From Pararhizobium qamdonense (lineage in GTDB: Bacteria; Pseudomonadota; Alphaproteobacteria; Rhizobiales; Rhizobiaceae): a DNA stretch of 64,000 bases. The stretch is taken from the NCBI RefSeq assembly GCF_029277445.1, contig NZ_CP119566.1, forward strand, positions 3,846,001 through 3,910,000, given 5' to 3'. Below are positions 36,923 through 49,918 of the stretch, piece by piece (the stretch's first letter is position 1; each line of letters starts with the position of its first letter). The translations under genes and the position numbers were made by a program. The notes beneath the pieces were generated by a model. It made no database searches. It was given only the letters and a program-made list of their open reading frames with translations, and was not told the origin of the DNA.

Positions 36923-38120
<1,198 letters not shown>

Positions 38121-42071: not shown

Positions 42072-42743
42072 TCAGCTCCAGTCGATGCAATAGCCAAGGA
42101 AACGCTTGGAATCGATGGGATCAAAACCCAGCCGCTTGCGCAGCTTCTTGCGCAGCTTGCTGATATGGCTTTCGACGACGTTCTCTTCGACGTCCTCATC
42201 GAAAATGCCGTAAATCGCGTTGAAAATCTGGGACTTGGATACACGGCGTCCGCGATTGGAGACCAGATATTCCAGAATGCGGCGCTCGCGGCGCGGCAAG
42301 GCGAAAACTTCACCCTGGACTTCCGGATCGCGGCCATCGGAAAACACCCGGATCGGGCCGATATCGGTGAAATTCACCAGGGCCTTCAGGCGGCGGCGGA
42401 TCGCTGCGGCCCGTGCCAGGATTTCGCGGGGATGAACCGGCTTGCGCACGACATCATCGACCCCACAGTCGAAGAACGCCAGCGTCGTTTCCAGAGACGG
42501 GCTGTCGCTGATTGCGATCACCGGTGCCGTCGAACGGTCCCGGATGGCGCGCGGAAGGCTCATGGCCTTTTCGCCCTGGCCGATCAGGAACGCCTCGACC
42601 GCGTCGATATCGCTATCGGCCGCCTTCGAAACCCAATCGCCGAATTCGCTGGGATCGAACCCTTGAGAGGGCACGCCCTCGCGTCCGAACAGTGAAGTAT
42701 ATCCGTCTTTTACAAGCTCACGCTCATCAACCACTACGATCAT
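42072..42743 (-). CDS. ftcR: OmpR-family flagellar master-type regulator
   Basis: 223 residues: receiver-like domain (1-115) and winged-helix trans_reg_C DNA-binding domain (about 130-222, with [29 protein letters not shown]). The phospho-accepting Asp expected near residue 50-53 is absent (sequence around [11 protein letters not shown]), while the conserved Lys101-Pro102 remains, so it is probably not controlled by phosphorylation. Rem/FtcR orthologues activate the late flagellar genes in Sinorhizobium and Brucella. Its promoter region carries two CtrA-type boxes and three GANTC sites. It heads the ftcR-flgE-...-fliR unit. Confidence 0.93.
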
Positions 42744-42755
42744 TCGTCCGCCTCC

Positions 42756-42803
42756 GAATCAGTATCGCGTCTCTATGGTTAAGAGGTACGAATCGGGGGA
42801 TTC
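42756..42803. promoter_or_regulatory. three GANTC (CcrM) sites in the ftcR leader
   Basis: GAATC at 42756-42760, GAATC at 42790-42794 and GATTC at 42799-42803 lie 13-60 bp upstream of the ftcR start codon. GANTC is the CcrM methylation site of alphaproteobacteria; clusters in promoters can couple expression to the cell cycle. Chance expectation in equiprobable sequence is about one per 256 bp. Confidence 0.55.
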
Positions 42804-42834
42804 ATGAACAACTATGGAATGTGAGTGACTGAAA

Positions 42835-42849
42835 TTAATAGTAGATTAA
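42835..42849. promoter_or_regulatory. CtrA-type box 1 upstream of ftcR
   Basis: TTAA-TAGTAGA-TTAA matches the full CtrA consensus TTAA-N7-TTAA in both halves. It lies 92-106 bp upstream of the ftcR ATG. Confidence 0.65.
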
Positions 42850-42920
42850 GATTTGTGTGCCGATTTGAACTAGATGTAGTGGCATTGTCCAAATCTGGCA
42901 CTAAATTTCATGTGGAAACG

Positions 42921-42935
42921 TTAACACCGGATTAA
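42921..42935. promoter_or_regulatory. CtrA-type box 2 upstream of ftcR
   Basis: TTAA-CACCGGA-TTAA, a second full match, 178-192 bp upstream of ftcR. A near-match (TTAA-TTCACCT-ATAA, 7 of 8) lies at 43003-43017 close to the end of the next gene. Confidence 0.65.
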
Positions 42936-48782: not shown

Positions 48783-49763
48783 TTACTGCTGGAACAGGCG
48801 CAGGATGTTTTCAGAGTTGGTATTGGCGATCGACAGCGCCTGGACGCCGAGCTGCTGCTGCGTCTGAAGCGCCTTGAGGCGGGTCGATTCCTCGTTCATG
48901 TCCGCATCCACCAGACGGCCGACGCCCTTGTCGATCACGTCCATCAGATTGGCAACGAAGTTTTCCTGCATGTCGATGCGGCTGGTGATGGCGCCGAGCG
49001 TTGAGGCGGCATCGGTCAGGCTGCTCAGCATGGCGTCGACGGCGCTGATCATGCCGTCAATGTCATTGTCGCTCGTGGCTGTCGTCAGCGTCACCAGCTT
49101 CGAGTTCGTTGGCGCGGTGCCGCCTTCAGCGAGGAGGAGATGGTAGGTCGCGTTTGCAGTGCCGGTGGCGGCAGTGGTGCCAACCGGCTGAGACACCTTG
49201 ACGGCTTTGGTCAACTGGCCGAGCGAGGCGTTCTTGGTATCGATCAGGATTGATGCAGCCGTGTTGTAGTCCAGGGTCGAAACGGACACGTTGCCGCTGG
49301 TCGAGCGATTAAAGGAGGCCACGACCGATTTGGTGCCGGCTGGCGTGGTGCTGTCATTGTAGAGCCAGTTCTCGCCCGAGAAGGACGCGGATTCTGCAGC
49401 GGAGGCCAGCTGGTTCTTCAGCTCGCTCAGTTCCTTGTTGATCTTGGTCTTGTCGACACCCGGCTCGCGCGCAGCGACCAGCTTGGCCTTGATCTCGGAG
49501 ACGACATCGATGGCCGAGCTCATACCGGCATAGGACGTATCGATCTTTGCCGCACCCAGTCCGAGTGCATCCTGCACGGTCGAAAGCGCCGCATTGTCGG
49601 AACGCATAGTGGTCGCGATCGACCAGTAGGCGGCGTTGTCCGCTGCCGTTTCGACGCGGTAGCCGGAGGAAATGCGGTTTTGCACTTCTTCCATGTTTGT
49701 ATTGATGGAACGCAAGGTCTGAAGGGCGGCCATAGCCGCCGAATTGGTCAATATGCTGGTCAT
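48783..49763 (-). CDS. flaC: flagellin (third copy, divergent)
   Basis: 326 residues from the ATG at 49763 (MTSILTNSAAMAAL). The conserved D0/D1 N-terminus (LQTLRSINTNMEEVQNRISSG) and the C-terminal D0 (LKALQTQQQLGVQALSIANTNSENILRLFQQ) flank a variable central domain of about 140 residues. It differs from the two other copies throughout the centre and in the C-terminal stretch (ITSRIDMQENFVANLMDVID, where the others read NKRISMQDDF). Monocistronic, with two CtrA-type boxes 115-155 bp upstream and the conserved leader block 30 bp upstream. Copy numbering follows the Agrobacterium order flaA-flaB-flaC and is inferred. Confidence 0.9.
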   Translation of the reverse strand: MTSILTNSAAMAALQTLRSINTNMEEVQNRISSGYRVETAADNAAYWSIATTMRSDNAALSTVQDALGLGAAKIDTSYAGMSSAIDVVSEIKAKLVAAREPGVDKTKINKELSELKNQLASAAESASFSGENWLYNDSTTPAGTKSVVASFNRSTSGNVSVSTLDYNTAASILIDTKNASLGQLTKAVKVSQPVGTTAATGTANATYHLLLAEGGTAPTNSKLVTLTTATSDNDIDGMISAVDAMLSSLTDAASTLGAITSRIDMQENFVANLMDVIDKGVGRLVDADMNEESTRLKALQTQQQLGVQALSIANTNSENILRLFQQ

Positions 49764-49792
49764 TTGGTCATTGCCCCAGTTCAATTGTAAAC

Positions 49793-49839
49793 GGAACATT
49801 CCGGGTGATGACCGGCAGCGACGGGACCAGCGTCATGCA
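49793..49839 (-). promoter_or_regulatory. conserved flagellin leader block, flaC copy
   Basis: On the minus strand GCATGACGCTGG ... CCGGTCATCACCCGGAATGTTCC, ending 30 nt before the flaC ATG. Two identical-looking blocks precede the other flagellin genes at 30-35 nt. Shared core: GCATGA-N-GC at the 5' end and CCGGWATGTYCC at the 3' end. Confidence 0.65.
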
Positions 49840-49877: not shown

Positions 49878-49892
49878 TTAACGAACACTTAA
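49878..49892. promoter_or_regulatory. CtrA-type box upstream of flaC (proximal)
   Basis: TTAA-CGAACAC-TTAA, full match to the TTAA-N7-TTAA CtrA consensus, 115-129 bp before the flaC start. Confidence 0.65.
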
Positions 49893-49903
49893 CAACGGCA
49901 TGG

Positions 49904-49918
49904 TTAACAAATCCTTAA
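49904..49918. promoter_or_regulatory. CtrA-type box upstream of flaC (distal)
   Basis: TTAA-CAAATCC-TTAA, a second full match 26 bp from the first (centre to centre), about two and a half helical turns. Confidence 0.65.

What the first reader, a model, noticed from the sequence alone, without database searches (positions are those of the whole stretch)
42756..42935. Two full CtrA-type boxes and three GANTC sites in the ftcR promoter region
TTAA-N7-TTAA occurs at 42835-42849 and 42921-42935, and GANTC occurs three times at 42756-42803, all within 192 bp upstream of ftcR. In equiprobable DNA a full CtrA box is expected once per about 65 kb and GANTC once per 256 bp. This suggests that the OmpR-type flagellar activator is controlled by the cell-cycle regulators CtrA and CcrM. 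The FtcR receiver lacks its phospho-acceptor Asp, so transcriptional control may be its main input.
Basis: partly seen in the sequence, partly recalled or inferred. Interest (0 to 1): 0.8.

Follow-up and report, generated by a model that had tools for sequence, protein, structure and literature searches.

The report
Methylation-timed switch for flagellar master gene
The start region of the gene that turns on flagella in these soil bacteria carries a deeply conserved DNA-methylation site, laid out as at the cell-cycle gene gcrA, which suggests that flagellum building may be timed by DNA replication.

Summary
In 130 ftcR/rem loci a GANTC stands 54-66 bp before the start codon in 92 genomes (shuffles: mean 6.4, max 13), first of 256 gapped motifs, its middle base free; near-clade parsimony changes per base are 5, 1, 15, 5, 4. 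That is what a CcrM site should look like. It lies between a conserved TTG and TA. The layout TTG-N5-GANTC-N10/11-TA also stood upstream of gcrA in 41 of 41 genomes examined; over 13 genomes the only recurring owners found were gcrA (13) and ftcR (9). The Agrobacterium gcrA promoter is reported less active when methylated. The other two GANTC sites show no CcrM-specific signature. The distal CtrA box behaves like a CtrA site; the proximal one is conserved along its whole length. In S. meliloti CtrA is reported neither to bind nor to affect rem; Brucella ftcR is listed as a possible CtrA target. Best reading: ftcR is methylation-timed, perhaps read by GcrA, with CtrA a lineage-specific extra. 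Promoter use, methylation and binding are inferred.

The parts
42072..42743 (-). ftcR/rem, OmpR-type flagellar activator with a receiver that lacks the phospho-acceptor Asp
42756..42760 (-). GANTC site 3 (coding strand TGATTCGGAGG, -17 from ATG, beside the ribosome-binding site); fits YGAKTCG; centre always T
   Evidence: (110 of 130)
42783..42788 (-). inferred -10 element TACCTC (TA at -45/-44 conserved; not a consensus match)
   Evidence: one search found no consensus promoter
42790..42794 (-). GANTC site 2 (-51, coding CGATTCG, fits YGAKTCG); mostly near clade, held as part of TTCGTA rather than as GANTC
   Evidence: (41 of 130)
42799..42803 (-). GANTC site 1 (-60), inside the inferred -35/-10 spacer, 5 bases after TTG; middle base free, flanks constrained: the CcrM-type site
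42809..42811 (-). inferred -35 core TTG
42835..42849 (.). CtrA-type box 1 (proximal, -106), conserved over all 15 bp including the spacer in the near clade
42870..42879 (.). palindrome CTANATNTAG, each fixed base kept in 52 to 63 of 63 near loci; unassigned regulator site (VisNR is a guess)
42911..42918 (-). TTTCCACA next to box 2, mostly conserved in the near clade (last base weakly); resembles a DnaA box (untested)
42921..42935 (.). CtrA-type box 2 (distal, -192), fits TTAA-N6-GTTAAC; second half conserved, spacer free

Best explanation
ftcR is transcribed from a weak sigma-70-type promoter (TTG, 17-18 bp spacer, TA) whose spacer holds a CcrM methylation site, five bases behind the TTG. The methylation state of this site, which changes when the replication fork passes and again when CcrM acts late in the cycle, sets promoter activity. 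This happens either directly, as reported for the gcrA promoter in Agrobacterium (less active when methylated), or through the sigma-70 partner GcrA, with TGATTCG downstream and CGATTCG in the spacer as possible GcrA contacts. CtrA acting at the distal box, and VisNR and MucR, are further lineage-dependent inputs. Shown here: the conserved layout, the GANTC-specific constraint, the sharing with gcrA, and the presence of gcrA, ctrA and a CcrM-type methylase gene. Inferred: that this promoter is used, that the site is methylated, that the polymerase or GcrA reads it, and the sign of the effect.
For: GANTC at -66..-54 in 92 of 130 genomes, shuffle mean 6.4, max 13, rank 1 of 256 gapped motifs (second 43), centre A24 T59 G5 C6 over 94 sites; 57 of 87 and 41 of 66 after dereplication at 60% and 50% identity (the interval was set after seeing the positions, and the shuffles used the same interval). 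Parsimony changes 5,1,15,5,4 in the near clade (two columns either side: 11-21) and 18,11,37,22,23 over all 130 (either side: 36-49). TTG to site 1 offset is 8 in 66 pairs, 9 in 4, 10 in 1. Same layout upstream of gcrA in 41 of 41; in 13 genomes 61 places, the only recurring owners found being gcrA 13 and ftcR 9. GcrA found in 198 of 199 genomes, the RAMA domain (recalled as the CcrM C-terminal domain) in 197 of 199. Literature: GANTC at -28/-29 of Caulobacter ctrA P1, and GANTC between -10 and -35 linked to activation at 40-60 min (PMC4287350, passages); the Agrobacterium gcrA promoter is less active when methylated (PMC11514494) and CcrM depletion cuts swarming by about 35%; the sigma-70 -10 is poorly conserved in S. 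meliloti (PMC3616915, passages).
Against: 38 of 130 genomes lack a GANTC in that interval, 9 near and 29 far, and 16 loci keep TTG-N20/21-TA without any GANTC inside, while nearly all genomes have GcrA and a CcrM-type gene; so the site is dispensable in some lineages and no presence/absence test was possible. The consensus scan finds no promoter; the start site was not mapped here. The Agrobacterium main text does not name rem, and its authors say the swarming loss may reflect slower growth. Site 1 rarely has the GcrA extension YGAKTCG (9 of 53 near, 12 of 77 far), though site 2 has it in 37 of 53 near loci. The layout is not enriched genome-wide (own genome 5 places, reversed control 9). In Caulobacter only 31% of cell-cycle starts enriched for GcrA have a GANTC within 50 bp.
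Confidence: 0.62

Rival explanations
1. CtrA is the main cell-cycle input: it binds both boxes and directly activates ftcR.
For: N7-specific recurrence of TTAA-N7-TTAA: 23 of 53 near (distal interval) and 13 of 77 far loci, other spacings at most 6 and 2; far shuffle mean 0.49, max 3. Box 2 fits TTAA-N6-GTTAAC with a free spacer. A ctrA orthologue is present. A review table lists Brucella ftcR with CtrA (PMC12548446).
Against: S. meliloti ChIP-seq and depletion were negative for rem (PMC4433202). Box 1 is conserved through its spacer, which plain CtrA binding does not require. Full boxes are absent from 64 of 77 far loci within 300 bp. Relative to the inferred start neither box is at -39.
Confidence: 0.25
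2. The TTAA-rich stretch is mainly a target of the H-NS-like silencer MucR and of VisNR; the CtrA-like look of box 1 is incidental, and VisNR uses CTANATNTAG and box 1.
For: MucR binds AT-rich rem promoter pieces with T-A steps in S. meliloti (PMC10572780); VisNR activates both rem promoters (review PMC8429497). The palindrome is strongly conserved and box 1 conserved over 15 bp in the near clade.
Against: Nothing here links VisNR to either element. The N7 spacing preference fits CtrA.
Confidence: 0.35
3. The GANTC sites are incidental parts of core-promoter and ribosome-binding sequences and have nothing to do with methylation.
For: Fits sites 2 and 3: their centres are always T and their conservation belongs to longer stretches.
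Against: Site 1 keeps GA and TC while its middle base changes at the rate of its neighbours, in a window depleted of GANTC, and gcrA shares the layout.
Confidence: 0.13

Closest known systems
gcrA promoter of Agrobacterium and relatives
   Same: TTG-N5-GANTC-N10/11-TA, found upstream of gcrA in 41 of 41 genomes examined; same one-base clade difference behind the GANTC; reported less active when methylated in Agrobacterium (PMC11514494, passages)
   Different: gcrA has more GANTC sites (6 in 250 bp in Agrobacterium) and a fixed centre at this site (GAGTC); ftcR has CtrA-type boxes upstream
ctrA P1 promoter of Caulobacter
   Same: GANTC at -28/-29 from the start, responsive to GcrA and hemi-methylation (PMC4287350, passages); at ftcR the site would lie at about -27 if the start is near -33 from ATG
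   Different: the ftcR start is inferred, not mapped; the gene product is a flagellar activator
rem promoter of Sinorhizobium meliloti
   Same: orthologous gene; CtrA motif already proposed in 2006 (Rotter, as cited in PMC4433202); two promoters, VisNR-activated, MucR-bound
   Different: in the sister species S. medicae box 2 is reduced to its second half, whereas the window has two full boxes; CtrA reported not to bind in S. meliloti
Brucella ftcR
   Same: orthologous gene, listed as MucR-silenced with VjbR and CtrA as possible counter-silencers (PMC12548446 table)
   Different: GcrA ChIP-seq exists for Brucella abortus (PMC6813329) but its main text does not mention ftcR

Membership tests
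CcrM-methylation-controlled promoter | GANTC selected as such (outer bases kept, middle base free) | tested here: met
   site 1 only:
CcrM-methylation-controlled promoter | same signature at sites 2 and 3 | tested here: not met
   centre always T at both; conserved as part of longer stretches
CcrM-methylation-controlled promoter | GANTC within the core promoter | tested here: inconclusive
   75 of 130 have TTG-N20/21-TA with a GANTC (site 1 or 2) inside, 16 have the pair without, 39 have no such pair; start site not mapped; one search finds no consensus promoter
CcrM-methylation-controlled promoter | CcrM-type methylase gene in the genome | tested here: met
   RAMA domain at G000:C1:3563230-3563520; the catalytic part was not searched
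CcrM-methylation-controlled promoter | site methylated and activity methylation-dependent | not testable with these tools
   needs SMRT data and reporters
GcrA-dependent promoter | GcrA gene present | tested here: met
   G000:C1:4100227-4100757, E 2.7e-60
GcrA-dependent promoter | YGAKTCG near the start site | tested here: inconclusive
   site 3: 52 of 53 near, 58 of 77 far; site 2: 37 of 53 and 2 of 77; site 1: 9 of 53 and 12 of 77; start inferred
GcrA-dependent promoter | GcrA occupancy and dependence | not testable with these tools
   no binding data here
CtrA-controlled promoter | TTAA-N7-TTAA with N7 spacing preference across orthologues | tested here: met
CtrA-controlled promoter | half-sites kept, spacer free | tested here: inconclusive
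   box 2 yes (second half); box 1 spacer as conserved as its half-sites
CtrA-controlled promoter | CtrA occupancy | not testable with these tools
   published: negative in S. meliloti, listed as possible in Brucella
FtcR/Rem regulators | OmpR-type DNA-binding domain, receiver without the acceptor Asp, flagellar neighbourhood | tested here: met

The most novel reading that the evidence does not exclude
gcrA and ftcR/rem form a two-gene promoter class in the Rhizobiaceae: both fire from newly replicated, hemi-methylated DNA through a CcrM site at a fixed place in the sigma-70 spacer, so that commitment to build flagella is clocked by passage of the replication fork. This would bypass CtrA, and would let rem be a cell-cycle node in S. 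meliloti although CtrA does not bind it.
Probability: 0.35. Interest if true: 0.78.

Novelty: new member of a known kind. Interest (0 to 1): 0.62.

Why it matters
In Caulobacter CtrA directly regulates flagellar genes. In rhizobia the step from cell cycle to flagella is open: Pini 2015 reports the majority of motility genes to be indirect CtrA targets and argues against rem as the relay. A conserved CcrM-type site in the inferred core promoter of the flagellar activator, shared in layout with gcrA, offers a concrete and testable link. It would also offer one reason why CcrM-depleted Agrobacterium swarms less. The free-middle-base test is a simple way to tell likely CcrM sites from chance GANTC in other promoters.

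Tried and rejected
The idea that all three GANTC sites are CcrM sites was tested and rejected for site 2; site 3 stays undecided. The idea that the layout marks many promoters found no support: 61 places in 13 genomes, no enrichment over the reversed control, and no recurring owner found beyond gcrA and ftcR. Caveats: only N10 was searched in the own and six near genomes and only N11 in six far ones; eight of the twelve were already known to have the layout at gcrA; I took the longest ORF within 450 bp, which mis-framed four gcrA loci and one ftcR locus (L273), so other recurrences could have been missed. A test on genomes that lack GcrA or CcrM was not possible, since 198 and 197 of 199 have the genes. 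The viral scan found no relative of FtcR. The own ctrA upstream region has four GANTC sites and no TTAA-N7-TTAA in 500 bp and was not used further. A strict GTTG..GANTC..TACC pattern found three places in the genome, ftcR among them. Structure prediction was not run: the question is about DNA. AT content as such (for MucR) was not measured.

Numbers left out: 130 of the 165 genomes with an ftcR match were analysed (30 supplied as loci, 100 chosen by me from the listed rest); the tool kept 80 of 530 named relatives, itself a capped list; 40 of 198 gcrA genomes were fetched, plus the own one. 'Near' means the first 53 loci by protein identity (79% or more), 'far' the other 77 (71% or less).

Full report
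What is in the window. The region is a flagellar cluster on the minus strand: flaF, a flagellin-domain gene (probably flgL), flgK, flgE, ftcR, a lytic transglycosylase, fliK, a motB-type gene and flagellins (gene names inferred from Pfam matches). ftcR (42072-42743) follows a 280-bp intergenic region. The nearest named FtcR proteins are from Rhizobium, Pararhizobium and unnamed Rhizobiales, two of the 80 kept being 100% identical. The two full CtrA-type boxes and three GANTC sites are present at the stated places. In the numbering below, -k before ATG is window position 42743+k.

Chance. The window has 4 TTAA-N7-TTAA places against 0.04 expected, but the genome has 55 against 47 for the reversed pattern. 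GANTC is depleted about fourfold (86 against 346 expected), a known trait of these bacteria whose cause may not be CcrM alone (PMC3973325, passages). A triple within 48 bp would arise by random placement in about 12% of windows. The case therefore rests on conservation.

Orthologues. FtcR is found in 165 of 199 genomes of the family at E 1e-40 or better. I used 130 of them and 80 named loci. In one search, 133 near loci were reduced to 63 sharing less than 80% identity, and the upstream region was profiled column by column. It shows: the distal box with a conserved GTTAAC half and a free spacer; TTTCCAC; a palindrome CTANATNTAG whose fixed bases are kept in 52 to 63 of 63; the proximal box conserved over all 15 bp; TTG at -68; GANTC at -60; TTCGTA at -49; and TGATTCGGAGGCGG at the ribosome-binding site.

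The GANTC test. At -66..-54 a GANTC is found in 92 of 130 genomes (shuffle mean 6.4, max 13); it ranks first of all 256 XYnZW motifs, the next having 43. The centre is A24, T59, G5, C6 over 94 sites. Dereplicated sets give 57 of 87 and 41 of 66. The interval was chosen after seeing the positions; shuffles and rival motifs were scored in the same interval. On an ftcR gene tree (FastTree, parsimony counts) the five columns changed 5, 1, 15, 5, 4 times in the near clade and 18, 11, 37, 22, 23 times over all 130; the two columns on either side changed 11-21 and 36-49 times. The middle base thus drifts like its neighbours while the outer bases are held. Site 2 (-51) occurs in 41 of 130, always with T, and is held as TTCGTA. 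Site 3 (-17) occurs in 110 of 130, always with T, inside a nearly invariant stretch; it fits YGAKTCG but is not diagnostic. A further GANTC with a variable centre stands at -112..-98 in 36 of 130 genomes, mostly far ones.

Promoter layout. TTG and TA are spaced as a sigma-70 core with a 17- or 18-bp spacer. Site 1 starts 8 bases after the first T of TTG in 66 pairs, 9 in 4 and 10 in 1; site 2 starts 17 after it in 42. In all, 75 of 130 loci have TTG-N20/21-TA with a GANTC inside, 16 have the pair without GANTC, and 39 have no such pair, many of these keeping a GANTC but with TTT, TTA or another triplet in place of TTG. A consensus scan finds no promoter there, and the -10 (TACCTC) is poor, so the start site (about -33) is inferred. 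The original mapping paper (Rotter 2006) is not held.

gcrA shares it. In the own genome TTG-N5-GANTC-N10-TA occurs at five places, one before ftcR and one before gcrA. In 40 further genomes and the own one, 41 of 41 gcrA upstream regions have the layout. Over 13 genomes there are 61 places (N10 searched in the own and six near genomes, N11 in six far ones). The only recurring owners I found are gcrA (13 of 13 genomes; eight of the twelve added genomes were known to have it) and ftcR (9 of 13; eight by ORF clustering plus G138 by coordinates); the other 39 did not recur. The layout is not enriched over the reversed control (own 5 against 9; near six 28 against 68; far six 28 against 30). Both genes have N10 in the near clade (gcrA 21 of 21; ftcR 42 of 44 sites with a TA at 9-12 bases) and mostly N11 in the far clade (gcrA 20 of 20; ftcR 35 of 46, with 9 at N9) (one search took the first TA and did not require TTG).

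CtrA. Spacing 7 stands out: distal near interval 23 of 53 (other spacings at most 6), far loci 13 of 77 (others at most 2; shuffle mean 0.49). So CtrA-type boxes have been kept or re-gained in ftcR promoters. But the proximal box looks like more than a CtrA box, and S. meliloti data are negative: PMC4433202 (passages read) says that rem was neither bound nor changed and cites Rotter 2006 for the motif. S. medicae has the proximal box and only half of the distal one. The main text of the S. meliloti start-site map (PMC3616915, passages) names flagellin genes but not rem among CtrA motifs; its tables were not seen. PMC12548446 (passages read) lists CtrA and VjbR as possible counter-silencers of MucR at Brucella ftcR. 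MucR binds S. meliloti rem promoter pieces (PMC10572780, passages read); VisNR activates both rem promoters (PMC8429497, passages read).

Mechanism. The best reading is a methylation-timed core promoter. PMC4287350 (passages read) places GANTC at -28/-29 of Caulobacter ctrA P1 and links GANTC between -10 and -35 with activation at 40-60 min; it also says that only 31% of GcrA-enriched cell-cycle starts have a GANTC within 50 bp. PMC11514494 (abstract, passages, sections 20 and 21 read) reports that the Agrobacterium gcrA promoter region carries six GANTC and is less active when methylated, even in E. coli, and that CcrM depletion lowers swarming by about 35%; it does not name rem in the main text. 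PMC3667746 (passages read) shows S. meliloti and B. abortus GcrA binding methylated GANTC better. PMC7987155 (passages read) cites YGAKTCG as the activating motif, says that sites upstream and downstream of promoters can activate, and warns of fast rewiring and some disagreement with that model. PMC5172544 (passages read) shows MucR shielding GANTC from CcrM in S. meliloti at two pSymA loci; rem is not mentioned in its main text. Whether methylation lowers the ftcR promoter, as at gcrA, or GcrA raises it, cannot be told from sequence.

Literature on the point. In the listings no title or abstract start connects ftcR or rem with CcrM or GcrA. One listed paper (PMC10787603) holds all three words ftcR, GcrA and CcrM once each; its single ftcR passage is about MucR. 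I read listings and the passages named above, not every paper, and most subscription papers are not in the library.

Verdict. CtrA control is an old proposal with conflicting evidence. The conserved CcrM-type site, shared in layout with gcrA, is the part worth following.

Noticed in passing
42870-42879: Palindrome CTANATNTAG strongly conserved upstream of near-clade ftcR genes (fixed bases in 52 to 63 of 63) with free N positions; a dimer site for an unassigned regulator, VisNR being one guess.
   Followed up: partly
42911-42918: TTTCCACA beside the distal CtrA box, mostly conserved in the near clade and similar to DnaA motifs listed for Caulobacter.
   Followed up: no
L220-L259, L001-L130: The gcrA and ftcR promoters show the same one-base difference (N10 near, mostly N11 far) between GANTC and the -10; unexplained.
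   Followed up: partly
49878-49918: A second pair of TTAA-N7-TTAA boxes, one continuing as TTTGTTAACCAT on the minus strand, upstream of flagellin 48783-49799; flagellin genes are reported direct CtrA targets in S. meliloti.
   Followed up: no
36983-38075: Densest GANTC stretch of the window, 8 sites in 900 bp, at the flaF end of the cluster.
   Followed up: no
42775-42782: CtrA half-site TTAACCAT on the minus strand over the inferred start of ftcR, seen in some close relatives only.
   Followed up: no
42750-42761: TGATTCGGAGGC at the ribosome-binding site of ftcR is nearly invariant in the near clade and well kept in the far one, which may reflect translational control.
   Followed up: partly
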